From NCBI RefSeq assembly GCF_032854445.1, contig NC_088296.1, forward strand, positions 246,001 through 310,000: a DNA stretch of 64,000 bases, written 5' to 3'. The notes below the pieces were generated by a model. The model did no database searches. It had not been told where the DNA came from and saw only the letters and a program-made list of their open reading frames with translations. The position numbers and the translations under genes were made by a program. Within the stretch, counting starts at the first letter, position 1. Every line of letters begins with the position of its first letter. This DNA comes from Liolophura sinensis (Eukaryota > Mollusca > Polyplacophora > Chitonida > Chitonidae). This document shows positions 10,111 to 55,145 of this stretch, one piece after another.

Positions 10111-10129
10111 CATACCCATGAGGTAACTT

Positions 10130-12000
<1,871 letters not shown>

Positions 12001-12066
12001 GTTATTTAACTGGTGTTTTAGGCCATACATACTTATACGACAGCTGCCAGCACTATGGTGGGAATA
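12001..12066 (-). mobile_element. SINE 3' body fragment (unit 1)
   Basis: Words aactggtgttttaggccata, cttatacgac and gccagcactatggtggga match the 3' half of the tRNA-derived SINE in minus orientation. The head is missing. Confidence 0.55.
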
Positions 12067-12544
12067 AACTTTTTAAAGTTTTCAAATTAGAGATCAGATT
12101 CAGATATTTTACCTCAAACAAAATGATGACTACAAAATTACAGTTTTTTGGCCAAAATAAAAAAAAGGTTTACAAAGTAAATATAAGACTTTGTCTCACC
12201 CAATACACACTTGCCACTCATTGTACAAATATTGTCCAACAAAAGAGCATGGATAAATGTAGCTTTTTCCTTGATTATTCAAAGATTACTGCCCATCAGA
12301 ATGTCCTTTTCCAGGCTGTGGGAAAGGAACCCAAATGTACACTGACTGATACTTCATGGGGCTGAATTTGTGAAGTGTGAGCACATACAAAAATCAGCTG
12401 AAAATTACTGAAACTGTAAACAAAATACTGCATGCACTTACAAATTTACAACTTTAATTTATCTATAATTGCTACAGACATTAGCTTAGGGTTTTGAGAT
12501 TGTTTTTCACCAAAATAAAAGTGAAAACAGTGTAATAAATGTTA

Positions 12545-12800
12545 CACTCAGGTACATGTACATCCCTCTTGCCAATAGCATATACCTGAGCTATACCTCC
12601 ACCTATACCTCAGACACACCTCAGCCATCATCTTTTTACCAACCATAGTACCTCAGGTTCAACTTCAATACACCTCACATACATGTTGGCCTACAACCCC
12701 AAGTACAGGTATACCTCAGACACACCTTCAGATATGTCCTACCTCAAGGGTACACCTCAGGTGTGCCTCAAGTATACTCCCAGTACACCTTATGGGTTAT
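12545..12800. repeat. Irregular short tandem motif (tacctca/cacctca) tract (unit 1)
   Basis: Words of the type tacctcag, cacacctcag and acacctca recur irregularly about every 10-25 nt over 250 nt. The unit 2 copy is at about 45370-45610. It looks like a decayed simple repeat. Confidence 0.5.
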
Positions 12801-13215
12801 ACATGCGCCATTCGGGCAATTGTGTCCAAGCTAAGCCTCCGAAATGAAGTGTGAACAAGCGCTGATAAAACTGGATAAAACTGCCACAAAGACACACTTT
12901 AAATTTCTGCACTGCATCCTGTTAAATTATATCAGAATCTGTTTTGGATAGAACTAAAAACCCTCTGTCCAGTGTTATTACCCACCCCATGAATGTTATC
13001 AAGGTAAGAAGATGTCATGACTTCACTTCCAGCAACCACAGATCAAACACATGGCGTTAATGCCAGGTTGATTTTTGATATGTTGTAGAGAAAAGTGCAA
13101 ACTGCATGCGCAGGTATGCCATGGTACCACATGGAAGTTTAGAAGGGGATATATATTTTTGAGGTTGAATTTGACAAATTTACTACATAAATAGTGAAGG
13201 AAAATCAAAAAAAAA
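12790..13215. repeat. Dispersed repeat, copy i of a pair (unit 1)
   Basis: This and 14095-14520 share the ordered words atgcgc-attc, gtccaag, gcctccgaa, gaaggaggactgat-like, ataaaactg, ttttggatagaa, ttattaccc, atgttatga-cttcac, agaaaagt-caa, ctgcatg, ggtatg and gtaccat. They are therefore diverged copies of one element of about 430 bp, in the same orientation 1.3 kb apart. Confidence 0.6.
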
Positions 13216-13219
13216 AAAT

Positions 13220-14090
13220 CAAAAATCCCAATTTTGACTGATCACCTTTATTGTGATAAGGTCAAGTTGTGCTTGTCTTAACTGAACTACTTTTTGGTAT
13301 TTACCATGGGTTATCCCCAACCATTACAACCCCAACCCTATCTACCCACCACCCCCATCCCCACCCTGTTAATTATGCAAAATTTCACCCTTACACTTAT
13401 CAGGCTTGTACTTCCAAATTTTATTTACACAGGTGAGTGTAATATTGCATTTATTTGACCAGGACTGTATCAGGTCACAGCCATGTGTATATATTTAGAA
13501 GTAGCAGGTTATTTTTATCACATATTCTGAAACACCTACATACATGTATGACACATAGTGTACAATGCACGATTATGTGTTTCAATTTTGTTATGTGCAA
13601 AGTGACTTTACAAGATTAAATATGCTAATGCTGTGTTTCAAATAGGTCTGAAAGTTGATCTGCTTCTCACGTTTGATGAAATTTGATTAAATGTGCTGTC
13701 TGGGAAACAATAATAATAAAAAATTGTTTAGTTTTTGTAATTCATTTCTACAGGTACAAGTGGGGATAGGCTTAGTAATTCCTACATGACTTCTGCGCAG
13801 CTGAGTAGAGGTTGCAATATTATACAATCTAAGGACAACACTTGTTGCATTTTAATGTAATACAGGGTAAATGTTTATTTCTGCAAATTTTCTTTTTGAC
13901 AGGAAAGAAATAGAAACCCCATTCTCCACAAAACATCCTATCCCAAACTCTTACGTGTAGAGTATCAACCCAGGTGGGCTACTACAGACAGCCCTGAACT
14001 TCGACTTTTGCCATTGGACATGTAAGATTTTGGTTACAGTGCCAAACTCATATAAAGATATTACTAACAAAAAATTTTAAAACTTGTCCT
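13220..14090. other. No gene recognised (unit 1)
   Basis: AT-rich DNA between the two copies of the 430-bp repeat, with no exon-like signal. It includes a C-rich patch near 13340-13370. Confidence 0.45.
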
Positions 14091-14094
14091 TTTT

Positions 14095-14520
14095 ATTGGT
14101 TAAATATGCGCAATTCAGGAAAGTGGGTCCAAGACTTGTCTCCGAACTGAAGAAGGAGGACTGATTGGATAAAACTGACACAGAGGTATTTAAGTTATTC
14201 ATACACTATCAATTTCTGCTGTGCTACTTTGCATCTAACATGTCAAAATAAAATACATCAGAGGTTTAATTGTTTTGGATAGAATTGAAAACTTCCCCCC
14301 TGCCACAGTTATTACCCGCCACACTGGAGGTTACCAAATGCAGGAAAATGTTATGACTTCACTTTCAACCACTACAGCTAAAAAAGTGGTAGCTGAGAAT
14401 ATTGTAGACAAAAGTACAAGCTGCATGTAGAGGTATGGCAAGGTACCATGCGAAAGTTAGGGTATATATATATATTTTTCACGTTGAAGATTTAATACAT
14501 AATCATTAAGGAAAATCAAT
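14095..14520. repeat. Dispersed repeat, copy ii of a pair (unit 1)
   Basis: This is the second diverged copy of the element at 12790-13215. It lies immediately 3' of the TRIM gene and may overlap its 3' UTR region. Confidence 0.6.
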
Positions 14521-14565
14521 GCTCCGGTCTAAGCTAAAAGGGTAAGGCATATTTCTCTCATTTAG

Positions 14566-14571
14566 TTTATT
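14566..14571 (-). terminator. Candidate poly(A) signal of TRIM copy 1
   Basis: AATAAA on the minus strand, about 430 nt downstream of the TRIM stop codon. It is kept at 47383-47388 in unit 2. The hexamer is common in AT-rich DNA, so this is only a candidate. Confidence 0.3.
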
Positions 14572-15000
14572 TCTTAGGAATTAAAGTTACACAACACAAC
14601 AAAAATTACTACATGTATCATGTTGACAATATGTATTGTCATGTATAAAGTGTGAACTGTTTTGCTCAGTGACACTCCTGATTATGCTGATTTACAAGTC
14701 GCCACCACTAAAAAATGTAACTACCCAGTCATTATCCACATGTATTTTGTTTGGAAGAAAACTGACACTGATGTTCAGGACAAGTGAAACAGACTGTGTA
14801 TAACTACACCAAGATGTAAGCTTGTGACAGATCACTGACCACTTTGCAGAACAAGCTATACATACTGAATTAGCCACATTGCTCACATTAACTAAAACAG
14901 CAATGTTTCTGTTGTTGTTTTTTTAAAAAAACTAACAAAACAGTCTCCTTCAACACATGATAATATGATAGAAAAGATGTAATAAATAATTACCTGATGG

Positions 15001-15584
15001 TCAGGAAGTCCTTATCATATCACAGAGAACTGGAGGCAGAGTTGCAGAGTCACCCGTTATCAGACGAGCAGACACAGACACAGATTCAGACCAGACACCA
15101 AACTCAACCGATGGCACGAGAGGCTCTGTGACGATAACATCACTGACAGTGTACATTACCTGGTTGTTGTCACAGTCCAGGACTGTCAGTGTGTGGTCAT
15201 CACAGTCCAGGTACACACCCAGGTGATGAGGTCGTGTGTAACGTCTCCACTGTAGATAGCCAGGTTTGATCTCACCACGACCACTCTGACTATCACACCT
15301 GACCTCATCACAACGGTACTCCATCTCAATGTACCAGGAGTTACGGCCACGGTCTGTCACCTCACTCACATCACAGCTCTCTTGTGTCACTCCTACATCA
15401 CAGTAACAGTCATGTGAACAGGTGATGTTTATCTCCCAGTAGTACCTGCCCGTCTGGTAACGCCCGTCTGTCACAGCTCTCCTCCACCACAACACCCAGG
15501 ACAAGTCCTCAGCCTCTACCACACAGCCGCTGTCAGTGATTCTCAGCTTCCTGTCGTCTGTCTCTGTGAATCTCAGTGTCGGCT
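15001..15584 (-). CDS. TRIM copy 1 exon 6: PRY-SPRY domain
   Basis: 584 nt entered in phase 1 after tttttacag. PRY-like words are TLRFTETDDRKLRI and a GRYYWEINI core, followed by SPRY words VGVTQES and LGVYLDCDDHTLTVLD. It ends at ARLITGDSATLPP and a TGA. The length of about 194 residues is normal for a B30.2 domain. The domain is unusually rich in Cys and Asp (for example CSHDCYCD), and its central loop is where unit 2 carries its 14-nt deletion. Confidence 0.9.
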
Positions 15585-18500
15585 CTGTAAAAACAAAACA
15601 GAAGCAGCATAAACAACAGCAAACCACAAACACACGCTGTAAGACTGAGGTGTAAATACCTGTACACCTACCGTGGTTTTACTTGCTCAACACAATCTCT
15701 TGAAATAAAATGACATATATTTTTGACATTAATGTAATTTATATACAGATCCCTGTCATTTTCAGCCAGTTTAAAAGAGTTGAGCTTCGACAAGAACTAT
15801 ATCCATCACTAAATGACGGGTACGGCATAGACATAGACTAAGTACTGGGTTAAAATACAGGCTTTTAGCGGTCTAATTTGTTTAAAACTTATCACTTACA
15901 ACAAGAATAATACCTTCCTCTATCCAGCCATTGGTTTTAGTTGGCAGTTATGGCACATTTGAACACTCAATTCACTATCAAGCTGCAGTAGGCCTGTTGT
16001 CATTCGTGGAGTACCGAAGCCGTCTGTGTAATAAGGAAGGTAACTCGCCACACATAACTTACCAAGTGACTTTCATTGTCACAATACCCCCAAAGACTAT
16101 TTAATCCACCAGAAGTAGTCAGCTAAATTTTCTTCAATTTGCCATTTTTTTTAAAGATACCTAAATATTTAAATATTAACAACAAAGTTATATTGAGGGA
16201 GAAAGGACATGTAAACCTCATACTCTTATACATGGAATCTATACCCTTTAACATTAATAATGAAACAGATATGAGGGCATTTTTTCTCTTTTTCCCCCCT
16301 TTGAAATAAGTGTTTGACTACATTTGAATCTAGGAAATAATGGCGAATTTTTACTTGAATACACGTTTCAGTAATAATTAGGGGGACTCCGTGGTTCAGT
16401 TGGTTAGCGCGCTAGCGCAGCGTAATGAAACAGAAGGCTCTTACCATGCAATGCGGTCGCTGTGAGTTCAAGTCGAGCTCATGCTGGCCTCCTCTTCCGC
16501 CGTTCGTATAAAGGTCTTTCAGCAACCTGCAGTTGGTCGTGGGTTTCCACCGGGCTATGCCCAGTTTCCTCCAACCATAATGCTTGCCACCGTCGTCTAA
16601 GTGAAATATTCTTGAGTACGGCGTAAAGCACAAAAAATTGGGTGCAACATGTTATCTGTCCTGCTCTAAGAGTGTACACCTGCTCTTGTACACATGGAGT
16701 AAACATCACCCAGACACCACAGAATACACAAACACCACTCCTGATCTAACATTACACGCGCTGATTTGCAAATACAAAGTAGACACTGATGGCTTCACTA
16801 CCATCTGTTCTGATCTAATTTTGCAGCTGCTGATATATAATTCTGCTATGTACCTTCCTTTTTTTGTGACTTCTGGGCCAACTGTACGTTAATCTGAATC
16901 TCGTGTGCACATCCTTCTGTGTACCTCACATTAGTCTGTGTCGTCTGTGCCCACCCTACTGTATAGCCTACCTCACATATTAGCCTGTGTCTTCTGTGCA
17001 CACCCTACTGTATACCTCACCTTAGTCTGTGTCTCCTGTGCACATCCTACTGTATAACTCAAATTAGCCTTTGTCTTCTGTGCACACTCTACCGTATACC
17101 TCACATTAGCCTGTGTCTTCTGTGCACAAACTACTGTATACCTCGTACTAGACTGTGTCTTCTGTGCACACCCTACTGTATAACTCACATTAGCCTGTGT
17201 CGTCTGTACACACCTTACTGTATACTTCCTAGTAGCCTGTGTCTTCTGTGCACACCCTACTGTATACCTCACATTAGCCTGTGTCGTCTGTGCACATACT
17301 ACTGTATAACTCACATTAGCCTGTGTCCTCTGTGCACATCCTACTGTATAACTCAAATAAACCTTTGTCTTCTGTGCACAATCTACCGTATACCTCACAT
17401 TAGCCTGTGTCTTCTGTGCACACCCTACTGTATACCTCGTATTAGCCTGTGTTTTCTGTGCACACCCTACTTTATAACTCACATTAGCCTGTGTCTTCTG
17501 TACACACCTTACTATATACTTCCTAGTAGCCTGTGTCTTCTGTGCACACCCTACTGTATACCTCACATTAGCCTGTGTCTTCTGTGCACATACTAATGTA
17601 TAACTCACATTAGCCTGTGTCTTCTGTGTACACCCTACTGTATAACTCACATTAGCCTGTGTCTTCTGTGCACACCCTACTGTATACCTCGTATTAGCCT
17701 GTGTCTTCTGTGCACACCCTACTGTATACCTCACCTTAGTCTGTGTCTTCTGTACACACCTTACTGTATACTTCCTAGTAGCCTGTGTCTTCTGTGCACA
17801 CCCTACTGTATAACTCACATTAGCCTGTGTCTTCTGTACACACCTTTCTGTATATTTCCTAGTAGCCTGTGTCTTCTGTGCACACCCTACTGTATACCTC
17901 ACATTAGCCTGTGTCGTCTGTGCACATACTACTGTATAACTCACATTAGCCTGTGTCTTCTGTGCACACCCTACTGTATAACTCACATTAGCCTGTGTCT
18001 TCTGTGCACACCCTATTGTATACCTCACATTAGCCTGTGTCGTCTGTGCACATACTACTGTATAACTCGCATTAGTCTGTGTCGTCTGTGCATATCCTAC
18101 TGTATAACTCAAATTAGCCTTTGTCTTCTGTGCACACTCTACCGTATACCTCACATTAGCCTGTGTCTTCTTTGCACACCCTACTGTATACCTCGTATTA
18201 GCCTGTGTCTTCTGTGCACACCCTACTGTATAACTCACATTAGCCTGTGTCTTCTGTACACACCTTACTGTAAACTTCCTATTAGCCTGTGTCTTCTGTG
18301 CACACCCTACTGTATACCTCACAGTAGCCTGTTTCGTCTGTGCACATACTACTGTATAACTCACATTAGCCTGTGTCTTCTGTGCACACCCTACTGTATA
18401 ACTCACATTAGCCTGTGTCTTCTGTGCACACCCTATTGTATACCTCACATTAGCCTGTGTCGTCTGTGCACATACTACTGTATAACTCGCATTAGTCTGT

Positions 18501-21500
18501 GTCTTCTGTGCATATCCTACTGTATAACTCAAATTAGCCTTTGTCTTCTGTGCACACTCTACCGTATACCTCACATTAGCCTGTGTCTTCTTTGCACACC
18601 CTACTGTATACCTCGTATTAGCCTGTGTCTTCTGTGCACACCCTACTGTATAACTCACATTAGCCCGTGTCTTCTGTACACACCTTACTGTATACTTCCT
18701 ATTAGCCTGTGTCTTCTGTGCACACCCTACTGTATACCTCACAGTAGCCTGTTTCGTCTGTGCACATACTACTGTATAACTCACATTAGCCTGTGTCTTC
18801 TGTGCACACCCTACTGTATAACTCACATTAGCCTGTGTCTTCTGTGCACACCCTACTGTATACCTCACATTAGCCTGTGTCGTCTGTGCATATACTACTG
18901 TATAACTCGCATTAGCCTGTGTCTTCTGTGCACACCCTACTGTATAACTCACCTTAACCTGTGTCTTCTGTGGACACCCTACTGTATATCTCACATTAGC
19001 CTGTGTCTTCTGTGCACATCCTACTGTATAACTCACCTTAGCCTGTGTCTTCTGTGCACACCCTACTGTATACCTCACATTAGCCTATGTCTTCTGTGCA
19101 CATCCTACTGTATAACTCACATTACCCTGTGTCTTATATGCACACCTTACTGTATACCTCACATTAGCCTGTGTCTTCTGTGTATATCCTAGTGTACACC
19201 ACGCATTACCCTGTGTCTTCTGTGCACACCCTACTGTATAACTCACATTAGCCTGTGTCTTCTGTGCACACCCTACTGTATAACTCACATTAGCCTGTGT
19301 CTTCTGTGCACACCCTACTGTATACCTCGTATTAGCCTGTGTCTTCTGTGCACACCCTACTGTATACCTCACCTTAGCCTGTGTCCTCTGTACACACCTT
19401 ACTGTATACTTCCTAGTAGCCTGTGTCTTCTGTGCACACCCTACTGTATAATTCACATTAGCCTGTGTCTTCTGTACACACCTTACTGTATATTTCCTAG
19501 TAGCCTGTGTCTTCTGTGCACACCCTACTGTATACCTCACATTAGCCTGTGTCGTCTGTGCACATACTACTGTATAACTCACATTAGCCTGTGTCTTCTG
19601 TGCACACCTTACTGTATACATCACATTAACCTGTGTGTTCTGTGCACACCCTACTGTATACTTTACATTAGCCAGTGTCGTCTGTGCACATACTACTGTA
19701 TAACTCGCATTAGTCTGTGTCTTCTGTGCACATCCTACTGTATAACTCAAATTAGCCTTTGTCTTCTGTGCACACTCTACCGTATACCTCACATTAGCCT
19801 GTGTCTTCTGTGCACACCCTACTGTATAACTCACATTAGCCTGTGTCTTCTGTACACACCTTACTGTATACTTCCTAGTAGCCTGTGTCTTCTGTGCACA
19901 CCCTACTGTATACCTCACATTAGCCTGTGTCGTCTGTGCACATACTACTGTATAACTCACATTAGCCTGTGTCTTCTGTGGACACCCTACTGTATAACTC
20001 ACATTAGCCTGTGTCTTCTGTGCATACACTACTGTATAACTCACATTAGCCTGTGTCTTCTGTGCACATCCTGCTGTATACCTCACATTAGCCTGTGTCT
20101 TCTGTGCACACCCTACTGTATAACTCACCTTAACCTGTGTCTTCTGTGCACACCCTACTGTATATCTCAAATTAGCTTGTGTCTTCTGTGCACACCCTAC
20201 TGTATACCTCACATTAGCCTGTGTCTTCTTTGCACATCCTGCTGTATACCTCACATCAGTCTGTGTCTTCTGTGCACACCCTACTGTATAACTCACCTTA
20301 ACCTGTGTCTTTTGTGCACACCTACTGTATATCTCACATTAGCCTGTGTCTTCTGTGCACATCCTACTGTATAACTCACCTTAGCCTGTGTCTTCTGTGC
20401 ACACCCTACTGTATACCTCACATTAGCCTTTGTCTTATATGCACACCTTACTGTATACCTCACATTAGCCTGTGTCTTCTGTGCATATCCTAGTGTACAC
20501 CTCGCATTACCCTGTGTCTTCTGTGCACACCCTACTGTATAACTCACATTAGCCTGTGTCTTCTGCGCATATGCTTCTGTGTATCTCAAATTAGCCTCTG
20601 TCCTCTGGGCAAACCATACTGTATATCTGACAATAATTTGCATATTCTGGGCACACACTACTGTATACCTCGCATTAGTTAGCATCATTTTACCTGCCCT
20701 TTCTCTTGCCTAACATTAATGTGTATGGTTTATACTATCTGTACTTTGCAAACTCTTCTCACTTTCGTCTCTCTTGGAATACTGTTTATTTTCTTGGCAC
20801 GCCACGGACATATCGGTTTTGTTTTCTTAACAGAGTCTATCGTGTGTTTTGCAGGTACACAGCCGTTCGCCTTCTCCATTTTTGTCTGTGTCTTCGATGC
20901 ACACACTAATGTAAACCCTACAGTCCTTTATGTCGTCTAAGCACACCCTACTGAATGCCTTTTATACATAAGAACTTACTTGTAACACGTAGGGGAGATA
21001 TTTGTCCACCGACTGCTGCTTCTAAGTCCTGGTGATCTTGCATTGTCTCTTTTACAGTCACCTGTCTATGAACAACTTGGTCATGTTGTACAGAAGCTAG
21101 AAGCTTCTGTCTGCTGACCTCATGTTTCTCCAGTTCTGATCTTATCCCATTCAGCTGGTCATCAGTTCTGCGAGAAGAGGAGAGAAAACAAAGAAGCACA
21201 GTCGTGTAGTGATCTTGTGTCCGCGCAGTTATAAGAATGACATGATGTACTATTCCTAGTAGTTTAGATCTAATTTGTCTGGACAAACGTAAGATTGAAC
21301 ATTAGATATATCTCACACTTGAGTCATGTTTTGGACAACTACAGCTTACAGAAAAACATCTGCTGACAATAGTCACGTGCGCATGTATAACAAACATGGG
21401 GAGGTATAACACATTTATACATACGTTTTGGTGAAATCCGTGGAACCCTGTCAACAAACAGAATTGAGCCTACATATAAAATCAAGTAAAGAAGAAACAG

Positions 21501-23901
21501 ACACCTCTCCAGAGACATACAGTACACAAGCACCCTTGGCTTTTACCTCCAACATTTAGACCATTCCCTGATCTATTACATAGCCCACATCAGCTCTCAA
21601 TTCCGCTTAATAAATTCCATTGTGCTTCATACAATACAATTCCCCCTTATTTGCAAATCTATTTACATACAAACCTTGTTTTATTTAAAAAAGAAACAGC
21701 ATACAATATGTTCTTTTTGACATTACATGTTGCTACTTTATTGCTTTAATCGGACCGAGGGGCGCCACTGAGCATAATAAAGCTGTTGAACTCAGGATCT
21801 AAAACTTTAGCAGATCTGGCAGCATGAGGTGGATTTGAATACCTGATCACAGTTCCTAAGGGTGGTTTGGGTCTTAGGTAACGTCTGTAGTAGAGGCAAC
21901 TGATCTAATGTTAGAGATTGTGACTAACATCCTTGACTTACCTGCAAAAACTCCACGTCCATTGATGCTAATAAATCATTGGAAGCCTGTACCATCCTCT
22001 CCATTTCCTGAGCCTGTAGCTGTAAATGTTTGAGTATGGCGCTGCACTCGACACTCCACTGTGAATAGCGGGTCCTTATGCCATCTAAGGTGTGTTGTCT
22101 CCAGGCTTGTAAAGCTTCCAAGGCTGCACGGTAAGCCTTTTCTACTTCCTGAGTGTGAAGTTCCTGGCTTTCCTGCCAAACAGAAAATTCGTTTATTACC
22201 TCACCCACACCTTTAGAACTGCGTGTTCAAGAAGTTATATATGTATGTGTAAAAGGGTGAACTATACGCGCCACATAACCATGTGTCTCCGGGGTTGAGG
22301 GGATTTCCCTTTAATCCAGTGATGTACATGCCAGTCTCCACTCAAAACCCCAAAGGTACGTCGGTCAACCTCTGTAAGGGTTGTGCCATCAAAACTGCTG
22401 CTCCGAGCATGGTGAAGCCTTAGATGCTTCCAACCTCAGACACCTGGGGCTGGTTCAAACACGAACATTGTCGCCCCATCAGATCAAATGGTGACGTGTA
22501 TATATTATATATATTATTATGATATCGCGTGATTGGCAATGATATATCAAATGGAGTTGTCTGAGGTGGGCATATCGCGTGTGTCACTGAGAAGAAATTC
22601 ATAATAATGATACGATAGTCTGATTTAACTCTTTCATTGTAATCTACATATATAATATGTGACAGAATAAGCTTTAATAGCAATATTCTACATAGTCAAA
22701 ATGAGCCACAACAACATGAGACTGAACAGGTGTCATGGAAAATACAAACCTGTATCTTACTGTGCAGCCTCAGAACTCCTGACAGTGATTCCTTAGTTTC
22801 GCCTAAGACTTTCTCCAGTTCATTAGTCCTGCTCAAAACAGCTGGCTGTAATGGAAAAAAAAAACGCTACATTACAAAATCCGCCTTTCAAATGACTCAC
22901 TAAAGTACAGGACAAAATGTCCCATTCTTCACTACACATCATAAATTTTAGGTCAGTAAACAGTTCCAAATCAAGCAATATTTATTTTAATTATCGACTT
23001 ATATACTAGCATGGTACACGATTTAGATAGTGATTTAAGTTATTCGCCAAGAACATTTCTTGCTTCTTTCTCACATCATTGAAAACTGTTTATCACTTTT
23101 GTTTGCATGATTCCAAAGTAATTATGAATTTACACAATTTCTTAGTTTTTCGTGGTCGTTTTGGGAAATGACCACACGAGCATTGACTCCATTTCGGTTG
23201 ATGGCTTATATATGAATATCTTTTCGCATTACCTTGTCATTCTCAGCTGCAGATGGTATATCCCGCATAGCGTGTCCTTGATGCTCAACCACACACCCCA
23301 TACAGATCACCATCCGACACGGTTCACAGTACAAGCCGAATGGCTGACCATGTCTCGCACACGACGGCTGCTGGGTTGATTGGTGGTCCCTGCTGACTTG
23401 ACCCTGTGAGGTTTCCTGAGAGAGGTACTCCAGGGGCGAAATCAGATGGTGACGTTTCAGAGGACCCCTCATTGGGTGACAAAGAGCAAGACATTCCTGA
23501 CAGTAGAACACACCACAGTTGGTACAAAACTTCACAGCTCTGACGTGATTACCTTCCTCACACAGAGAACAATATGGGATGTCATCCTCAACCTTTACAC
23601 CAGATGAGAACCTCTCTACAATTTCTGCCAGCTGAAAGTTGGGAGGCAGACCAGCCACACCTTTTCTCCCCAGACTGGTCGGTGCCCGACACACAGGGCA
23701 TGCTATCAGCTGATGAACGTCCTCATACCCAGTGCTGCCGGAGCTCTCGTCTGTCTGTACATGTTTGAACTTGCCAGCATACGAATCAATGCATTCCCTA
23801 CAGAAACAGTGCTGACAGGGTAGCATTACTGGTTTCCGGAATGTTTCCGTGCATATCGAACAGGTGAGAACATCATCCCGCTTCTGCATGCTTTCGGCCA
23901 T
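15001..23901 (-). CDS. TRIM E3 ubiquitin ligase, RING-BBox1-BBox2-CC-PRY/SPRY (unit 1)
   Basis: This is a tripartite-motif protein of 596 aa. RING E3 ligases of this class transfer ubiquitin via the RING and recognise targets via the C-terminal PRY-SPRY (B30.2) domain, often in cytoplasmic innate immunity. Coding exons on the minus strand are 23901-23233, 22845-22750, 22172-21942, 21447-21425, 21167-20980 and 15584-15001. All introns are GT-AG and all phases agree. The RING ligands are C14, C17, C29, H31, C34, C37, C68 and C71. B-box 1 spans about 111-152. B-box 2 has C181, H184, C192, C195, C200, C203, H207 and H210. The coiled coil spans about 224-332 and the SPRY about 403-596. The start is the first ATG after a 3' splice site 19 nt upstream. 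The last intron (5.4 kb) holds a SINE and the 42-bp minisatellite. No gene name is assigned because C-IV TRIM orthology cannot be judged here. Confidence 0.88.
16381..16637 (+). mobile_element. tRNA-derived SINE in TRIM intron 5 (unit 1)
   Basis: The head ggggactccgtggttcagttgg contains a polymerase III A box, and gagttcaagtc is a B-box-like word about 65 nt later. The family body follows, ending at agtgaaatattcttgagtac and ggcgtaaagcacaaaaaatt. The full-length element is antisense to the TRIM gene. It is shared with unit 2, so it predates the duplication. Confidence 0.85.
16895..20690. repeat. 42-bp minisatellite in TRIM intron 5, about 90 units (unit 1)
   Basis: The consensus unit is ctcacattag/cctgtgtctt/ctgtgcacac/cctactgtat/aa (42 bp). 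Because 42 is divisible by three, the minus strand stays open and reads as a 14-residue repeat of the type YTVGCAQKTQANVR. Unit variants (VRY, VSY, RKY, TRY, LSY and ASY starts) are ordered rather than random. A ten-unit block of 420 bp recurs at 17923, 18343 and 18763. The array lies wholly in the intron between TRIM exons 5 and 6. Exon 5 cannot read through into it because stops intervene. Confidence 0.95.
20980..21167 (-). CDS. TRIM copy 1 exon 5 (188 nt, linker)
   Basis: This exon enters in phase 2 after a strong polypyrimidine acceptor (ctcctcttctcgcag) and leaves in phase 1 at a GTAAGT donor. It encodes a charged helical linker (TDDQLNGIRSELEKHEVSRQ…) between coiled coil and SPRY. The other two frames hit early stops, which fixes the phase. 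Confidence 0.85.
21425..21447 (-). CDS. TRIM copy 1 exon 4 (23-nt microexon)
   Basis: A 23-nt microexon encoding GSTDFTK plus two bases of the next codon. It lies between a strong acceptor (tgtttgttgacag) and a GTATGT donor. It is the only segment I found between exons 3 and 5 that has good splice sites and supplies the required phase change from 0 to 2. Length and position match the 23-nt exon of vertebrate TRIM-SPRY genes. Confidence 0.78.
21942..22172 (-). CDS. TRIM copy 1 exon 3 (231 nt, coiled coil)
   Basis: Exactly 231 nt, phase 0 to phase 0, between a tttggcag acceptor and a CAG|GTAAGT donor. The 77 residues carry heptad-like spacing (ELHTQEVEKAY…LEALQAW…LKHLQLQAQEMERM), the main body of the coiled coil used for antiparallel dimerisation in TRIM proteins. 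Confidence 0.9.
22750..22845 (-). CDS. TRIM copy 1 exon 2 (96 nt, coiled coil)
   Basis: Exactly 96 nt, phase 0 to phase 0, between a ttacag acceptor and a CAG|GTTTGT donor. It encodes 32 residues rich in L, E, K and S (…SRTNELEKVLGETKESL…), the start of the coiled coil. The nucleotide sequence is identical in the unit 2 copy. Confidence 0.88.
23233..23901 (-). CDS. TRIM copy 1 exon 1: RING, B-box 1, B-box 2
   Basis: The exon has 223 codons and ends in phase 0 at GACAAG|GTAATG. The start MAESMQ lies 19 nt after a polypyrimidine-AG acceptor (23922-23921), so an upstream noncoding exon is implied. It carries the complete C3HC4 RING with a long insertion between C37 and C68, a C-x2-C B-box 1, and a canonical B-box 2 (C-x2-H-x7-C-x2-C-x4-C-x2-C-x3-H-x2-H). 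Confidence 0.93.
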
Positions 23902-23920: not shown

Positions 23921-24738
23921 CTGCAACAAAAACGGTAAATCGCTCAGACGGGCACCTATAAGAATGTTCCTATTTACAAAAATATTAACGTTCAAGACAC
24001 CACAAAACCTCCATCTGTTCCCGTGTTCCCACAACACACTAAGTACAGTACTTTTGATCGCTATTCTCCAATTCTCGTTTAAGAAGCATTAAAGTGTCTA
24101 TACATGCACGAGGAGAGTATGCAAACCTCGCTTTCCTGAGAAGGAATCCATTCTGTTCAGTTAGAAATTTGGCCATTCTTCCTTTTATTGCGCTTTTTGG
24201 CAAAAATCTGGTCAGGCTAATTTGTGCAGAGGTGTTTTATAGTGATATTTCAAAGAGATATAGCTCCAATCCATAATTAGCAAGTCTGTGTGCAAAAACG
24301 AGATTATCGCTATTTAAATGTATATTTTTTAGGAAAGCCTGTTGACTACAGTGTTTATGATGGTAACTTCACCCTATATGCTGTATAATAATTGGGCCAA
24401 ACCTCTGGAATATCTCTATCTGCAGAAGTTTATACAATATATAATATATATAATAAACACGACATTACTAAGAGTGACACGAGCATTTCTTACTTATATT
24501 AAAACAGTTATAAACCAAGGTCAAATTTTGTATTCCAGCTCCCAATGTTTTTTTATGTTATTGTCAGAAATCACAGAAGTAAAGACTACAATACACCTGC
24601 TTATCAATCAAAACGATTAAACCGTAAAATGTTGACATCGTTCCAACGTGTGAAGTACATGACCGATTAGATACAGTGCTATAACAGGGACAGCCTGTCA
24701 TAGCACCGTATCAACTCAAAGACTGGATTGGAGATATG

Positions 24739-26559: not shown

Positions 26560-28080
26560 CTTTTTTTTTATATTTACACGTTGTAAGTAAATGAACAGCG
26601 ATCCATACAGGCATGATATCCGCGCTATGTGTGCCATAGGCAGCACGTCACCGCCAGTAATTGACCTTCAGCACAACTGTAAAATGCTTTTCAAGGTTAA
26701 AGCTTCACGACCCCAAATTAATAACGTAATATCGCCCTGTTAGAAGATCGACACAATCAAACAGTATAAACCTGAACAAAAATCAGTCGTTTTTCTTGTT
26801 ACGCAAATATCGACGGTTTTAGGTTCACACACAGGCTAGCATGGCTGATGTTACAGTCTTGAAAGAAAAAGTCCCATTCGTATATCTACGTTGTGTCGAT
26901 TTGAGGACGAGCAGACCAATTAAACTGTGTCTGACAGTGGGTGACACGATCAAGTAAAGACAACTCCTTAACCTGACAGATCGTTTCCATCCAAACTACA
27001 TATAATCGTCTCACAGAGCTTACCTGTCGACACAAATCCCACATGGTTTCACAACTTGGTGAAACTGAGCAGATTGGAATAGAAAATACTTAGTTCTGAG
27101 AAATGCACCTGATCTGTACAGGGGAGGTAAATCCCTCAGTATGTTTGTACACATTTATACTCTGTAACATCTCAAGAATGGTTTCTTCAACTCGTCATTA
27201 GCTTAAGGCCCATCCGTGAATGTCACACTTCAACGAACAATCAGTTTCCCACAAAATTACTTCAGTAAATGGGTTCAAATCATTTATATTTGTTATCCTG
27301 TTTAGGTTCAAAGCGAATACATTGGAAGTATAGTTGAGAAATGTCGGATGGATGTTCTCAAACCAGTATAATGAGAATAGGCAATAGCTACAATAGTTGC
27401 CCACTTGATTCAAGCGGCATTACCCTCGTGGGGTCTCCAGGCCGAAAAGAATACGACCTCAGTCTGCTTGGCAAGCTTGTCGTAAAGGGCGCCTAACCTA
27501 GAGCTCTACCGTGAGGCCTCGGTGAAATATACACTCACATCTCCTATATTTGTGTGAGGGACCATAGAGGAATAAGCCTACCTGTTTGCCCTGGGTTGCG
27601 ACCCTTACTTGAAGAGAACGGTCTTGCGAGATTTTCAAGTCCAACACTTCACTTCGGCTCTTCTTTAGAGACTGAAGATCGGGTTGGCCCAGTTTGACTA
27701 ATCGGTTGGAGCAGATATGCTCCGAACTAAAATCACAAGGGTGTGTAAATGTCAAGCGATACGCAACATAAAAAAGACAATGATACTTATCGCCATTTGA
27801 TAACCCCTCTTTTCCTCAGTCGATCTCTACACCGCCAAAGTAGATCTGTACAAACCTAATATGTTTTGCCTGTATTAAGACAATAAAACGTTAAAATTGC
27901 GACGAAGCGTGTATGACCTTCTCTATGGACTGTCTTCTCTTTATAAAAGAGAAACAGGTCATTAACTCAAAAGAAACGACTCAAAAAGCACGTCACCGTA
28001 TCTCTTTGGCGAACAGTGTCCGGAAAACTTCATTCGCCAGTGTGGAGAGTATCAACAGGTGTTGACACTCAAATATCACT
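26560..28080 (-). repeat. Promoter/first-exon module C, unit 1
   Basis: This is a third member of the A/B family within the unit, sharing cgttgtaagtaaa, cagcacgtcaccgccagta, gaccttcagca, gaagatcgacaca, the gcttacctgtcgacaca donor and ggggaggtaaatccctcagt. Its far part (27420-28080) also matches the far part of module A (ggcccagttt, ccgaact-aaatc-caaggg, and the tgtc-ggaaaact-atttgcca-type words). Confidence 0.65.
27024..27159 (-). promoter_or_regulatory. Candidate first exon and TATA box C of TRIM copy 1
   Basis: TATAAAT (27159-27153) lies 129 nt from a CAG|GTAAGC donor (exon end at 27024). The intervening exon aligns with those of modules A and B, including the gatttacctcccct word. It is conserved at 58053-58188. 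Confidence 0.45.
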
Positions 28081-28216
28081 GACTTGCCGATGATTGGTTA
28101 CGGTAAACCTAAAACAATATCTGTGAAAGAATTAACTAACTTGTTAATAATTCTACATCTGCATCTGACTGTACACTCAGTCAAGACATCGCTGGACTAA
28201 GTTTTTATAATATCTC

Positions 28217-28474: not shown

Positions 28475-28639
28475 CATTAAACATCTCCAGCGCAATTATC
28501 AAAAGCTTTACCTAGAGCAATAACATTGTTTTGCTGCAGGACGTCCTAAATCTTTAGTTATTAGCACTGAAAATGCTGACCAATTCTCCACATTATGATC
28601 AAAGACTAAAACTTCATTTTCCCTGTTCTTTACCCCCAG

Positions 28640-47340: not shown

Positions 47341-47382
47341 CCGGTCTAAGCTAAAAGGGTAAGCCATATTTCTCTCATTTAG

Positions 47383-47825: not shown

Positions 47826-48398
47826 TCAGGAAGTGCTTATCATATCACAGAGAACTGGAGGCAGAGTTGCAGAGTCACCCGTTACCAGACGAGCAGACAC
47901 AGACACAGACACAGATCCAGACCCGATAAACCCAAACCATGGCACGAGAGGCTCTGTGACGACAACATCACTGGCAGTGTACATTACCTGGTTGTTGTCA
48001 CAGTCCAGGACTGTCAGTGTGTGGTCATCACAGTCCAGGTACACACCCAGGTGATGAGATCGTGTGTAAGGTCTGTACTGTTGATAGCCAGGTTTGATCT
48101 CATCACCAACACCAGACCTTATCACCACGGTACGCCATCTCAATGTACCAGGTGTTACGGCCACGGTCTGTCTCCTCACTCACACCACAGCTCTCCTGTG
48201 TCACTCCTACATAACAGTTACAGCCATGTGAACAAGTGATGTGTATCTCCCAGTAGTACCTGCCCGTCTGGTAACGCCCGTCTGTCACAGCTCTCCTCCA
48301 CCTCAACACCCTGGACAAGCCCTCAGCCTTTACCACACAGCCGCTGTCAGTGATTCTCAGCTTCCTGTCGTCTGTCTCTGTGAATCTCAGCGTCGGCT
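47826..48398 (-). pseudogene. TRIM copy 2 exon 6: frameshifted PRY-SPRY
   Basis: 573 nt against 584 nt in copy 1: a 14-nt loss near 48105-48125 and a 3-nt gain in a cagaca microrepeat near 47900. The first part reads PTLRFTETDDRKLRI … GRYYWEIHI … YIEMAYRGDKVWCW and stops. The second part (LGVYLDCDDHTLTVLD … SATLPP) is still recognisable one frame away. The well-preserved downstream part implies that the deletion is recent. Confidence 0.85.
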
Positions 48399-51300
48399 CT
48401 GCAAAAACACAACAGAAGCAGCATAAACAACAGCAAACCATAAACACACGCTGTAAGACTGAGGTTTAAATACCTGTACACATACTGTATTTTTAATTTT
48501 CAACACAATCTCTTGGAATAAAATGACATATATTGCTGACACGAATTTAATTTATACACAGATCTCTGTCATTTTCAGCCAGTATGAAAGAGTTGAGCTT
48601 CGACAAGAACTGTATCCATGGCTAAATGACGGGTACGACATAGACATAGAGTAAGTAGGTCTACTGGGTTAAAATACAGGCTTTTAGCGATCTAATTTAT
48701 TTAAAACTTATCACTTACAAAAAGAAAAATACCTTCCTCTATCCAGCCATTGGTTTTAGTTGTCAATTATGGCACATTTGAACACTCAATTCCAGGCAGC
48801 GAAATTTGGCCTGCCGGCGAAACCCAGAAATCGGTTACGTCTTTTCCGCCTCGTCTAACCGATCATTCGGTCACGCCACGTATGTTTATCAACCCGATCG
48901 GTTACGCTAATTGTTTACGTGGTTTATGTTTCAGGCATCATTATGGATCATTAATAAAAGTATTCAGCTCAATGTTATGTTTGTTTTTCTTTTCTATATC
49001 TAGCAGCTCATACCGTAAGGTTGGTGAACAAAAGAAAGAGAAATTTTACACTCACACGGTGTTTCAACGTTGTGTGTTGCCTGGTTGGTACTTGACTCCT
49101 GTGGCACATTTTTACGTGAAATTCCGTTAAACAGGCTTATATGTTTGCAATATGCCCAGTCCAACATTAAGTACTTCCAGTAAGTGTCATTACGGTATTG
49201 GGGAGCGAGTTTGGTATCCCTGATTACTGATAATTAACGCAGTTTCCAACGCACGTGGTGTGAGTCTTATCACAGTGATATATATATATACTCGCTACAG
49301 GGCCGGGAGAGACCTTGACGTCACAGGCCTGTGCTCTAAATCAGAACGCAGCCAGTGAGGTCCCGTGAGGGTTCCATCAATCTGTACGGTAGACTCGACT
49401 AATTTGGGCTCGAGTAGCAGTTAAACTACATGTACATGTAAAGGTAACCTTGTTTTATTTATTTGCGTGATCGTGAAAAGATAAGTCAAAATAAATAATT
49501 TGAGTATTATCTCAAAGCCTGTAAAGCATATATGAATGATTACATTTCCATGTGACCAGCACAGGCAGCTGGCTGTGGCTGAAATCGATGTTTCTATTTT
49601 TAGACGCGTTGCCATACTGGCCGCGTTGTGATTATGAAAGCTGTTCAGTCCAGTTTATCTGTAGTTACCTAATGCACACTGACTCTAAGGACGTTCTCGT
49701 TGGACAGTTGGCCTAACCGATTTTCCGGTTAGCCAAATTGAACCGCACGGTTTCGTTCGCGCCAAATTTCGCTGCCTGCAATTCACTATCAAGCTGCAGT
49801 AGGCCTGTTGCCATTCGTGGAGTTCCGAAGTTGTCTGTGTAATAAGGGAAGTAACTCGCCACACATAACTTACCAAGTGACTTTCACTGTCACAATACCC
49901 CCAAAGACTATTTAATCCACCAGAAGTAGTCAGCTAAATTTTCTTCAATTTGCCATTTTTTTTAAAGACACCTAAATATTTAAATATTAACAACAAAGTT
50001 ATATTAGGGGGGAAGAGCATGTAAACCTCATACTCTTATACATGGAATCTATATCCTTTAACATTAATAATGAAACAGATATGAGGGCATTTTTTCTCTT
50101 TTTTATTCCCCCTTGAAGTAAGTGTTTGACTACATTTGAATCTAGGAAATAATGGCGAATTTTTACTTGAATACACGTTTCAGTAATAATTAGGGGGACT
50201 CCGTGGTTCAGTTGGTTAGCGCGCTAGCGCAGCGTAATGAAACAGAAGGCTCTCACCATGCAATGCGGACGCTGTGAGTTCAAGTCCAGCTCATGCTGGC
50301 CTCCTCTTCGGCCGTTCGTGGAAAGGTCTTCCAGCAACCTGCAAATGATCGTGGGTTTCCACCGGGCTATGCCCAGTTTCCTCCCACCATAATGTTTGCC
50401 GAAGTCGTCTAAGTGAAATATTCTTGAGTACGGCGTAAAGCACAAAAAATTGGGTGCAACATGTTATCTGTCCTGCTCTAAGAGTGTACACCTGCTCTTG
50501 TACACATGGGGTAAACATCACCCAGACACCACAGAATACACAAACACCAGTCCTAATCTAACATTACACCCGCTGATTTGTAAATACAAGGTAGACACCG
50601 ATGGCTTCACTACCATCTGTTCTGATCTAATTTTGCAGCTGCTGATATATAATTCTGCTATGTACCTTCTTCCTTTTGTGACTTCTGGGCCAACTGTACA
50701 TTAATCTGAATCTCCTGTGCACATCCTACTGTGTACCTCACATTAGTCTGTGTCGTCTGTGCCCACCCTACTGTATACCTCACATTAGTCTGTGTCTTCT
50801 GTGCACACCCTACTGTATAACTCACATTAGCCTTTGTCTTCTGTGCACATCCTACTGTATAACTCACATTAGCCGTTGTCTTCTGTGCACATCCTACTGT
50901 ATAACTCACATTAGCCGTTGTCTTCTGTGCACACTCTACCGTATACATCGCATTAGCCTGTGTCTTCTGTGCACACGCTACTGTAAACCTCGTATTAGCC
51001 TGTGTCTTCTGTGCACACCCTACTGTATAACTCACATTAGTATGTGTCTTCTGTGCACACCTTACTGTATACCTCACATTAGCCTGTGTCTTCTGTGCAC
51101 ACCTTACTGTATACCTCACATTAGTCTGTGTCTTCTGTGCACACCTTACTGTATACCTCACATTAGCCTGTGTCTTCTGTGCACACCCTACTGTATACCT
51201 CAAATTAGCCGTTGTCTTCTGTGCACATCCTACTGTATAACTCACATTAGCCGTTGTCTTCTGTGCACACCCTACTGTATAACTCACATTAGTCTGTGTC

Positions 51301-54300
51301 TTCTGTGCACACCTTACTGTATACCTCACATTAGCCTGTGTCTTCTGTGCACACCTTACTGTATACCTCACGTTAGCCTGTGTCTTCTGTGCACACCTTA
51401 CTGTATACCTCACATTAGTCTGTGTCTTCTGTGCACACCCTACTGTATACCTCACATTAGTCTGTGTCTCCTGTGCACATCCTACTGTATAACTCACATT
51501 AGCTGTTGTCTTCTGTGCACACTCTACCGTATACATCACATTAGCCTGTGTCTTCTGTGCACACGCTACTGTAAACCTCGTATCAGCCTGTGTCTTCTGT
51601 GCACACCCTACTGTATAACTCACATTAGTCTGTGTCTTCTGTGCACATCCTACTGTATACCTCGCATTACCCTGTGTCTTCTAAGCACACCCTACTGTAT
51701 AACTCAAATTAGCCTCTGTCCTCTGGGCAAACCATACTGTATATCTGACAATAATTTGTATATTCCGGGCACACACTACTGTATACCACACATTAGTTAG
51801 CATCCTTTTACCCACCCTATCTCTTGCCTAACATTAATGTATATGGTTTATACTATCTGTACTTTTTGTAAACTCTTCTCACTTTCGTCTCTCTTGGAAT
51901 ACTGTTCATTTTCTTGGCACGCCACGGACATATCGGTTTTGTTTTCTTAACAGAGTCTATCGTGTGTTTTGCAGGTACACAGCCGTTCGCCCTCTTCATT
52001 TTTGTCTGTGTCTTCGATGCACACACTAATGTAAATCCTTCAGTCCTTTATGTCGTCTAAGCACACCCTACTGTATGCCTTTTATACATAAGAACTTACT
52101 TGTAACACGTAGGGGAGATATTTGTCCACTGACTGCTGCTTCTAAGTCCTGGCGTTCTTGCATTGTCTCTTTTACAGTCACCTGTCTAGGAACAACTTGG
52201 TCAAGTTGTACAGAAGCTAGAAGCTTCTGTCTGCTGACCTCATGTTTCTCCAGATCTGATCTTATCCCATTCAGCTGGTCATCAGTTCTGCCAGAAGAGG
52301 AGAGAAAACAAAGAGGCACAGTCGTGTAGTGATCTTGTGTCCGCGCAGTTATAAGAATGCCATAATGTACTATTCCTAGTAGGTTAGATCTAATTTGTCT
52401 GGACAAACGTAAGATTGAACATTAGATATATCTCACACTTGAGTCATGTTTTGGACAACTATAGCTTACAGAAACACATCTGCTGACAATAGTCACGTGC
52501 GCATGTATAACAAACATGGGGACGTATAACACATTTATACATACGTTTTGGTGAAGTCCGTGGAACCCTGTCAACAAACAGAATTGAGCATACATATAAA
52601 ATCACGTAAAGAAGAAACAGATACCGCTCCAGAGACACACAGTACACAAGCACCCTTGGCTTTTATATCCAACATTTAGACCATTCCCTGATCTATTACA
52701 TAGCCAACATCAGCTCTCAATTCTGCTTAATAAATTCCATTGTGCTTCATACAATACAATTCCCCCTTATTTGCAAATCTATTTACATACAAACCTTGTT
52801 TTATTTAAAAAAAAACAGCATACAGTATGTTCTTTTTGACATTACATGTTGCTACTGTATTGCTTTAATCGGACCGAGGGGCGCCACTGAGCATAATAAG
52901 GCTGTTGAACTCAGGATCTAAAACTTTAGCAGATCTGGAAGCATGAGGTGGATTTGAATACCTGATCACAGTTCCTAAGGGTGGTTTGGGTCTTAGGTAA
53001 CGTCTGTAGTAGAGGCAACTGAACTAATGTTAGAGATTGTGACTTATATGCTTGACTTACCTGCAAAAACTCCACGTCCATTGATGCTAATAAATCATTG
53101 GAAGCCTGTACCATCGTCTCCATTTCCTGGGCCTGTAGCTGTAAATGTTTGAGTATAGCACTACACTCCACACTCCACTGTGAATAGCGGGTTCTTATGC
53201 CATCTAAGGAGTGCCGCCTCCAGGCTTGTAAAGCTTCCAAGGCTGCACAATAAGCCTTTTCTACCTCCTCAGTGTGAAGCTCCTGGTTTTCCTGCCAAAC
53301 AGAAAATTCGTTTATTACCTCATCCACACCTTTAGAACTGTGTGTTCAAGAAGTTATATATGTATGTGTAAAAGGGTGAACTATACGCGCCACATAACAA
53401 TGTGTCTCCGGGGTGGAGGGGATTTCCCTTTAATCCAGTGATGTACATGTAAGTGTCTACTCAAAACCCCAAAGGTACGTCGGTCAACTTCTAAAAGGGT
53501 CGTGCCATCAAAACTGATGCTCCGAGCATGGTGAAGCCTTAGTTGCTTCCAACCTCAGACACCTGGGGCTGGTTCAAACACGAACGTTGTCGCCCCATCA
53601 GATCAAATGGTGACGTGTATATATTATAGATATTATTATAACAGCGCATGATCAGAGATGATATATCAAATGGAGTTGTCTGAGGTGGGCATATCGCGTG
53701 TGTGTCACTGAGAAGAAAGTCATAATAATGATACCATAGTCTGATCAGACAAGCCAGAAATAAGTAAATAGACTCGTCGTTCACATAAATAAATCACCGC
53801 ATCAGTCCGTGTATTCCCCTGTTTAAGTTCTGATAAAAAGTCGTCAATATTCGGGTTTAACTCTTTAATTGTAATCTACATATATAATATGTGACAGAAT
53901 CAGCTTTAATAGCAATATTCTACATAGTCAAAATGAGCCACAACAACATGAGACTGAACAGGTGTCATGGAAAATACCAACCTGTATCTTACTGTGCAGC
54001 CTCAGAACTCCTGACAGTGATTCCTTAGTTTCGCCTAAGACTTTCTCCAGTTCATTAGTCCTGCTCAAAACAGCTGGCTGTAATGGAAAAAAAACGCTAC
54101 ATTAAAAAATCCGCCTTTCAAAAGACTCACTACTGTACAGGACAAAATGTCCCATTCTTCACTACACATCATAAATTTTAGGTCAGTAAACAGTTCCAAA
54201 TCATGCCATATTTATTTTGATTATCGACTTATATACTAACATGGTACACGATTTAGATAGTGATTTAAGTTATGCGACCAGAACATTCCTTGTTTCTTTC

Positions 54301-55145
54301 TAACATCATTGAAAACTGTTTATCACTTTTCTTTGCATGATTCCAAAGTAATTTTGAACTTACACAATTTCTTAGTTTTTCGTGGTTTGTGTTAATAGTC
54401 GTTTTGGGAAATGACCACACGAGTATTGACTCCATTTCGGTTGATGGCTGATATACGAATATCTTTTTCACATTACCTTGTCATTCTCAGCTGCTGATGG
54501 TATATCCCGCATAGCGTGTCCCTGATGCTCAACCACACACCCCACACAGATCACCATTCGACACGGTTCACAGTACAAGTCGAATGACCGACCGTGTCTG
54601 GGGCATGACGGCTGCTGGGTTGATTGGTGGTCCCTACTGACTTGGCCCTGTGAGGTTTCCTGAGAGAGGTACTCCAGGGGCGAAATCAGTTGGTGACGTT
54701 TCAGAGGACCCCTCATTGGGTGACAAATAACAAGACATTCCTCACAGTAGAACACACCACACTTGTTACAAAACTTGACAGCTTTGACGTGATTACCTTC
54801 CTCACACAGAGAACAATATGCGATGTCATCCTCAACCTTTACACCAGATGAGAACCTCTCCACAATTTCTGCTAGATGAAAGTTAGGAGGTAGACCAGCC
54901 ACACCTTCTCTCCCCAGACTGGTCGGTGCCCGACACACAGGGCACGCTATCAGCTGATGAACCTCCTCATATCCAGTGCTGTCGGAGCTCTCGTCTGTCT
55001 GTACATGTTTGAACTTGTCAGCGTACGAATCAATGCATTCCCTACAAAAACTGTGCTGACAGGGTAGCATTACTGGTTTCCGGAATGTTTCCACGCATAT
55101 CGAACAGATGAGAACATCATCCCGCTCTTGCATACTTTCGGCCAT
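48103..55145 (-). CDS. TRIM copy 2, intact RING-BBox-CC, truncated SPRY
   Basis: This is the duplicate of the unit 1 TRIM gene. Exons on the minus strand are 55145-54477, 54077-53982, 53291-53061, 52567-52545, 52287-52100 and 48398 onward. The lengths 669, 96, 231, 23 and 188 nt and all splice sites equal those of copy 1. All RING ligands and the B-box 2 ligands are kept. In the SPRY exon a 14-nt deletion puts a TGA at 48105-48103, giving a predicted 500-aa protein with PRY and only the first part of SPRY. It could be a pseudogene or a truncated TRIM able to dimerise and ubiquitinate but not to bind the SPRY target. Exon 1 differs from copy 1 at 22 of 223 residues. Confidence 0.8.
48793..49778. 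mobile_element. Nonautonomous DNA transposon, 986 bp (unit 2 only)
   Basis: The element begins CAGGCAGCGAAATTTGGC and ends with the exact reverse complement, an 18-bp perfect terminal inverted repeat. It is flanked on both sides by CAATTC. Unit 1 has a single CAATTC at the same place (about 15969), the clean empty site, so the 6-bp word is the target-site duplication. Subterminal regions carry repeated ATCGGTTA/TAACCGAT-type words, possible transposase binding sites. The only long frame (to 49130) shows no transposase motif. The superfamily is not assignable from 6-bp duplications and these ends alone. It lies in TRIM copy 2 intron 5. Confidence 0.9.
50193..50449 (+). mobile_element. tRNA-derived SINE in TRIM intron 5 (unit 2)
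   Basis: Unit 2 copy of the element at 16381-16637, with intact A-box and B-box-like words. Confidence 0.85.
50703..51805. repeat. 42-bp minisatellite in TRIM intron 5, about 26 units (unit 2)
   Basis: Same 42-bp unit as in unit 1. The minus strand is open for 321 codons and the plus strand for 252, which shows that openness is a property of the unit and not of one coding strand. The unit mix differs from unit 1: TTAN units (gttgtcttc) are common here and RKY units absent. The 420-bp higher-order block is missing. Confidence 0.95.
52100..52287 (-). CDS. TRIM copy 2 exon 5 (188 nt)
   Basis: Same length and phases as copy 1. By eye the two copies differ at six nucleotides and all six change an amino acid. 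Confidence 0.83.
52545..52567 (-). CDS. TRIM copy 2 exon 4 (23-nt microexon)
   Basis: Same position and splice sites as in copy 1. One silent change keeps GSTDFTK. Confidence 0.77.
53061..53291 (-). CDS. TRIM copy 2 exon 3 (231 nt)
   Basis: 231 nt, phase 0 to 0, with six residue differences from copy 1 including an Arg-to-Cys change in KAYCAALEAL. The coiled-coil pattern is kept. Confidence 0.88.
53982..54077 (-). CDS. TRIM copy 2 exon 2 (96 nt)
   Basis: Identical to the 96-nt exon of copy 1, with the same splice sites (ttacag acceptor; CAG|GTTGGT donor). Confidence 0.86.
54477..55145 (-). CDS. TRIM copy 2 exon 1: RING, B-box 1, B-box 2
   Basis: 223 codons ending at GACAAG|GTAATG. The start MAESMQERDD is chosen by analogy with copy 1 and because a 3' splice site (ttgcag) lies 15 nt upstream. 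The frame happens to stay open past that acceptor for 44 further codons, but that part aligns with intron in unit 1. All eight RING ligands are intact; C32 of copy 1, which is not a ligand, is Ser. Confidence 0.9.

What the first reader, a model, noticed from the sequence alone, without database searches (positions are those of the whole stretch)
15001..23901. Invertebrate TRIM-SPRY gene with the vertebrate 96-231-23 nt exon series
The sequence shows exons of exactly 96, 231 and 23 nt after a RING/B-box exon and before a linker and a PRY-SPRY exon, with matching phases (0-0-0-2-1) in two independent copies. Vertebrate class C-IV TRIM genes (for example the TRIM5/21/22 group and fish finTRIMs) are known for these exon lengths. 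SPRY-bearing C-IV TRIMs are often described as a mainly vertebrate expansion. If the host is a mollusc or relative, this gene shows that the architecture is older than vertebrates.
Basis: partly seen in the sequence, partly recalled or inferred. Interest (0 to 1): 0.75.

Follow-up and report, generated by a model that had tools for sequence, protein, structure and literature searches.

The report
TRIM-SPRY gene with TRIM21-like exon lengths
A probable invertebrate gene for a TRIM-type ubiquitin ligase is cut into exons much like those of the human immune gene TRIM21, which suggests that this gene plan may be older than vertebrates, though the predicted splicing and the family tree are not yet tested.

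Summary
The exon series is present on the minus strand at the stated coordinates: 669-96-231-23-188-584 nt, phases 0-0-0-2-1, one open 596-residue frame with RING, two B-boxes, a coil region and SPRY. Skipping the 23-nt exon gives immediate stops; a candidate of exactly 23 nt as strong arose in 7 of 1000 shuffles. The copies are not independent: they lie in a roughly 31-kb tandem duplication, about 93-95% identical over its longest blocks, and copy 2's SPRY is stopped early by a 14-nt deletion. Residues printed for human TRIM21 exons 3-5 fit the sum 96+231+23, though not the printed 3/4 split. Fish finTRIMs do not fit: 96, 234, 154, 60. PRY was not detected, and scores fit no single TRIM class. 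Between copies, exons 1-5 are constrained (dN/dS 0.30, 0.27); SPRY shows 22 nonsynonymous to 3 synonymous differences. Best reading: a TRIM E3 ligase, probably of a mollusc-like invertebrate, on an old exon skeleton shared with vertebrate class IV. Invertebrate B30.2 TRIM-like genes are already in print. New member of a known kind.

The parts
23233..23901 (-). Copy 1 exon 1 (coding part, 669 nt): RING (C14 to C71, complete C3HC4 set), B-box 1 (110-152), B-box 2 (177-213)
   Evidence: cysteines and histidine read from the sequence
23921..23922 (-). AG of a probable acceptor 19 nt before the ATG, implying a 5' UTR intron
   Evidence: sequence; inferred, no transcript
22750..22845 (-). Copy 1 exon 2, 96 nt, coil
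21942..22172 (-). Copy 1 exon 3, 231 nt, coil
   Evidence: weak Pfam TRIM_CC match 252-353, below its cut-off
21425..21447 (-). Copy 1 exon 4, 23-nt microexon
20980..21167 (-). Copy 1 exon 5, 188 nt, linker
15001..15584 (-). Copy 1 exon 6, 584 nt, SPRY and stop codon
16904..20678 (-). Copy 1 intron 5 minisatellite, 42-nt unit, 89.7 copies
54477..55145 (-). Copy 2 exon 1, 669 nt, RING and two B-boxes
53982..54077 (-). Copy 2 exon 2, 96 nt, identical to copy 1
53061..53291 (-). Copy 2 exon 3, 231 nt
52545..52567 (-). Copy 2 exon 4, 23 nt
52100..52287 (-). Copy 2 exon 5, 188 nt
47826..48398 (-). Copy 2 SPRY exon, 573 nt, broken by a 14-nt deletion with a stop at 48105-48103
50711..51796 (-). Copy 2 intron 5 minisatellite, 42-nt unit, 25.9 copies

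Best explanation
This is a tandemly duplicated TRIM gene, probably of a mollusc-like invertebrate. Copy 1 encodes RING, B-box 1, B-box 2, a coil region and SPRY. By analogy with known TRIMs it would dimerise through the coil, bind a target with SPRY and attach ubiquitin to it with the RING; a role in defence is the likeliest use. The 96-231-23 intron pattern of the coil, with its phases, is most simply inherited from a TRIM ancestor shared with vertebrate class IV genes. Shown: anatomy, frame, RING, B-box and SPRY domains, constraint on exons 1-5 between the copies. Inferred: splicing, host, ligase activity, target, common descent of the introns. It is filed as a TRIM with SPRY, not as a class IV member, because PRY was tested and not found.
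For: Exons, phases and open frame; RING, both B-boxes and SPRY above Pfam cut-offs; microexon needed for the frame and 7 of 1000 shuffles for exactly 23 nt; dN/dS 0.30 in exon 1 (p 0.0002) and 0.27 in exons 2-5 (p 0.002); TRIM21 exon residues fit the sum 96+231+23; weak similarity to solved vertebrate chains (best 41.6 bits for the whole protein; 46.2 for exon 1 alone) and CpG observed/expected 0.61 speak against a mammal-like host.
Against: No transcript. The printed TRIM21 border between exons 3 and 4 is two residues off 96/231. The coil matches no solved TRIM by sequence (2 hits at E up to 10, both E at least 0.44, neither a TRIM) and Pfam TRIM_CC only below its cut-off. PRY not detected. 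Two B-boxes; linker exon 188 nt. RING scores best with TRIM2, SPRY with BTNL3 and MID1, so the halves may have joined independently. Exon layout is not fixed in vertebrate TRIMs either: finTRIMs differ and most medaka hits are intronless, and carp TRIMs are called diverse (passage).
Confidence: 0.58

Rival explanations
1. The coil exon series is an old feature of several TRIM classes, and a SPRY exon was added to a TRIM2/3-like or MID-like RING-B-box-coil gene separately from vertebrate class IV.
For: Whole-protein scores are TRIM2 41.6, TRIM3 37, MID1 33.4, TRIM21 30.9 bits; SPRY exon scores BTNL3 21.7, MID1 21.6, TRIM21 16.1; PRY undetected; two B-boxes. That MID1-class genes also have a 96-nt exon is recalled only.
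Against: Exon 1 alone ranks TRIM2 46.2, then TRIM21 36.3, MID1 36.2 and TRIM3 35.0 bits, so the order is not stable. The sum 96+231 and the 23-nt step fit TRIM21.
Confidence: 0.3
2. The host is a vertebrate, for example a fish, and this is an ordinary divergent class IV TRIM.
For: Host not identified; the genome search could not be reached; CpG 0.61 does not exclude fish (recalled).
Against: SPRY similarity to solved human class IV domains is very low (TRIM21 E 0.063).
Confidence: 0.07
3. Both copies are dying duplicates and no functional SPRY protein is made.
For: Copy 2 frame broken; SPRY differences 22 nonsynonymous to 3 synonymous, not different from neutral when SPRY is tested alone (p 1.0 and 0.35).
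Against: Copy 1 is open to the end; exons 1-5 are constrained in the comparison.
Confidence: 0.1

Closest known systems
Vertebrate class IV TRIM, human TRIM21
   Same: RING, B-box, coil, SPRY order and coil exons that fit the sum 96+231 and then about 23 nt from printed residues; RING-B-box usually in one exon and B30.2 in one exon in TRIMs (passages of PMC2657112), as here
   Different: TRIM21 has one B-box and a PRYSPRY (passages of PMC9675474); here two B-boxes, PRY undetected, weak sequence similarity
Fish finTRIM
   Same: Two B-boxes, clustered duplicates, a 96-nt coil exon, fast-evolving B30.2 (passages of PMC2657112)
   Different: Middle exons 96, 234, 154, 60 nt in zebrafish, not 96, 231, 23, 188; positive selection was shown there, not here
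TRIM2/TRIM3 (NHL class)
   Same: TRIM2 is the best solved match of the RING region
   Different: That this class carries NHL and no SPRY is recalled; no NHL match was listed here
MID1/MID2 (class I)
   Same: B-box 1 region aligns with MID1 (36.2 bits); SPRY scores of MID1 and MID2 are near the top
   Different: No fibronectin III domain was listed here

Membership tests
TRIM (RBCC) family | RING with full zinc ligands | tested here: met
   Pfam above cut-off; C3HC4 set read in the sequence
TRIM (RBCC) family | One or two B-boxes after RING | tested here: met
   110-152 and 177-213, above cut-offs
TRIM (RBCC) family | Coiled coil | tested here: inconclusive
   TRIM_CC E 0.0077, 16.5 bits against cut-off 30; no TRIM among the 2 PDB hits
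Class IV TRIM | C-terminal SPRY | tested here: met
   33.2 and 36.3 bits, cut-off 26.3
Class IV TRIM | PRY joined to SPRY | tested here: not met
   No PRY family listed at E up to 10 (HMMER's filters drop most weak matches); the four PDB alignments shown begin at residue 36-43, after that part
Class IV TRIM | 96-231-23 coil exons with matching phases | tested here: inconclusive
   The series is in this gene, but the yardstick is one gene, TRIM21, and only the sum 96+231 and about 23 nt fit its printed residues
Class IV TRIM | Groups with class IV in a tree | not testable with these tools
   No animal sequence collection; only PDB scores, mixed
finTRIM | Coil and linker exons 96-234-154-60 | tested here: not met

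The most novel reading that the evidence does not exclude
The whole exon skeleton of immune class IV TRIM genes predates the split of protostomes and deuterostomes, and this invertebrate keeps a tandem array whose SPRY changes fast while its ligase part is held constant, the same way of evolving as TRIM5 and finTRIMs.
Probability: 0.4. Interest if true: 0.6.

Novelty: new member of a known kind. Interest (0 to 1): 0.4.

Why it matters
Two surveys place the SPRY group of TRIMs in vertebrates only, while a third expects it to be ancient because of B30.2 TRIM-like genes in several invertebrates. Shared intron positions and phases, including a 23-nt microexon, are a sharper marker than short diverged domains and could help to settle the question across animal genomes.

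Tried and rejected
Rejected: the two copies as independent witnesses. Rejected: finTRIM as a match for the exon lengths. Rejected: reading the long open frames of the intron 5 minisatellite as coding. Its 42-nt unit is a multiple of three; one sense and two antisense frames of the consensus are open; and in the open sense frame the third codon position is not the most variable in either copy (86 units of copy 1 and 24 of copy 2 counted).

Led nowhere: relatives in genome contigs (15 stretches, none confirmed) and in viral contigs (3 and 3 stretches, none confirmed), both unlikely places for animal genes; Rfam (0 matches); tRNA (0); PHROGs (two weak hits of exon 1 to phage families of unknown function, E 0.027 and 0.033, none for SPRY). 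The AlphaFold model of the SPRY exon alone was poor (mean pLDDT 41.6), so no fold search was run. Paper searches: (TRIM, 96 bp, 231 bp, 23 bp, coiled-coil, exon; at least five of six) held 0 papers; (tripartite motif, SPRY, Mollusca, TRIM; all) listed one paper, on HECT ligases, seen in the listing only; the 20 papers listed of 162 show zero counts for SPRY and B30.2; some searches were also seen as listings. So 'not in print' is not claimed. PMC11788884 (passages) did not bear on the question. The PRY-like look of the start of exon 6 is by eye only.

On checking this report I corrected the TRIM21 comparison (sum, not split), the class IV exon row of the membership table, the offsets of the duplication, and the order of RING scores.

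Full report
Observation. On the minus strand the gene reads 669-96-231-23-188-584 nt; all five introns begin GT and end AG; phases are 0-0-0-2-1, giving 596 codons and a stop. Removing the 23-nt exon puts two stop codons at the start of exon 5 in both copies. With a simple splice score (recalled consensus matrices) the 23-nt exon is the best microexon candidate in the 774-nt gap of copy 1. Of 1000 shuffles, 224 had any candidate of 3-60 nt as strong, 47 one with usable length and open frame, and 7 one of exactly 23 nt. So the microexon is well supported by sequence but not by a transcript. A probable acceptor 19 nt before the ATG suggests a further intron in the 5' UTR.

The copies. Copy 2 (55145-47826) has the same lengths for exons 1-5. 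Exon identities are 626/669, 96/96, 214/231, 22/23, 182/188 and 534/587 columns, and introns 1-4 are 94.5 to 96.9% identical over aligned bases. Self-comparison shows blocks repeated at offsets of about 30-34 kb, at 88-96% identity apart from the small repeats, for example 10981-15973 against 43816-48792 at 94.1% and 26909-30292 against 57938-61322 at 94.7%; part of a third unit lies at 62273-63169 (matches up to 250 nt and rows starting in the minisatellite were dropped from that listing). The copies are thus tandem duplicates and give one piece of evidence, not two. Copy 2's SPRY exon has a 14-nt deletion and a stop at 48105-48103, and the part before the stop scores 17.3 bits against a SPRY cut-off of 26.3.

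Selection. By Nei-Gojobori counts exon 1 has dN/dS 0.30 (23 nonsynonymous, 20 synonymous, Fisher p 0.0002) and exons 2-5 have 0.27 (12 and 12, p 0.002). SPRY has 15 nonsynonymous and 3 synonymous differences in 96 codons before the deletion (ratio 1.33, p 1.0) and 7 and 0 in 52 codons after it, read in the copy 1 frame (p 0.35). The codons at the deletion and the last part of the exon, with small indels, were left out. SPRY alone therefore does not depart from neutrality; what differs is SPRY (22:3) against exons 1-5 (35:32), p 0.0016. Because copy 2 is broken, relaxed constraint explains this as well as an arms race does. The synonymous divergence of exon 1 (0.15) exceeds that of introns 1-4 (3 to 5.5%), which is unexplained; gene conversion from another array member is one possibility.

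Domains. Pfam finds a RING, B-boxes at 110-152 and 177-213, and SPRY at 449-573, all above cut-off; TRIM_CC only at 16.5 bits against 30. PRY is not listed even at E up to 10. Against solved structures the whole protein scores TRIM2 41.6, TRIM3 37, MID1 33.4 and TRIM21 30.9 bits among 38 sequences. Exon 1 alone scores TRIM2 46.2, TRIM21 36.3, MID1 36.2 and TRIM3 35.0 among 24. The SPRY exon scores BTNL3 21.7, MID1 21.6, an RFPL1-like protein 20.3, MID2 20.1 and TRIM21 16.1 among 22. The coil finds no TRIM (2 hits).

Exon yardstick. Passages of PMC9675474 give TRIM21 residues 137-245 for exons 3-4, 167-245 for exon 4, 137-253 for exons 3-5, and a frameshift when exon 6 is skipped. Exons 3-4 are thus 109 residues (327 nt = 96+231) and exon 5 about eight residues (23 nt is 7 codons and 2 bases). 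The printed border at 167 is two residues from a 96/231 split, so only the sum is supported from print. PMC10048487 (passages) calls the exon-intron layout of carp TRIMs diverse. Exon lengths for TRIM5 and TRIM22 were not checked; I recall 96-231-23 as common in class IV, without a source here.

Host. Not identified; the genome search did not complete. CpG observed/expected is 0.61, and a SINE-like repeat gives 12 hits in the window, itself included. Its look recalls metazoan Nin-type SINEs known from limpets, but the paper seen in passages (PMC11121367) held none of the three strings searched, so this is recall. A reverse transcriptase fragment lies at 40413-40799.

Literature. PMC2533329 (abstract and passages) calls the SPRY group absent in invertebrates after fly, worm and Ciona. 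PMC3503706 (abstract and passages) lists subfamily G (class IV) as vertebrate. [quoted passage not shown] elegans, Nematostella and Trichoplax and proposes that class IV is ancient. The present gene leans towards the third view by intron pattern, without a tree.

Verdict. An intact TRIM-SPRY gene with a class IV-like coil exon series, in one independent instance, probably in an invertebrate. It is filed as a TRIM with SPRY, not as a class IV member. New member of a known kind, useful as a marker for dating class IV.

Noticed in passing
window 16904-20678 and 50711-51796: A 42-nt minisatellite in intron 5, 89.7 units in copy 1 and 25.9 in copy 2, with long open frames on both strands; codon position variation gives no sign of coding.
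   Followed up: yes
window 597-63169: Tandem segmental duplication with offsets of about 30-34 kb, blocks 88-96% identical, and part of a third unit at 62273-63169.
   Followed up: partly
window 16382-16648, 50194-50460 and ten other places: SINE-like repeat with a tRNA-like head by eye; ARAGORN finds no tRNA in the one copy tested.
   Followed up: partly
window 9158-10126 and 42606-43020: A 64-nt minisatellite, also present in both duplicated units.
   Followed up: no
window 40413-40799: Reverse transcriptase fragment (RVT_1, E 1.1e-9).
   Followed up: no
window 48793-49778, intron 5 of copy 2: About 1 kb that lies between two duplicate blocks which adjoin in copy 1, looking like a later insertion.
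   Followed up: no
window 23233-23901 against 54477-55145: Synonymous divergence of exon 1 (0.15) is about three times or more that of introns 1-4.
   Followed up: partly
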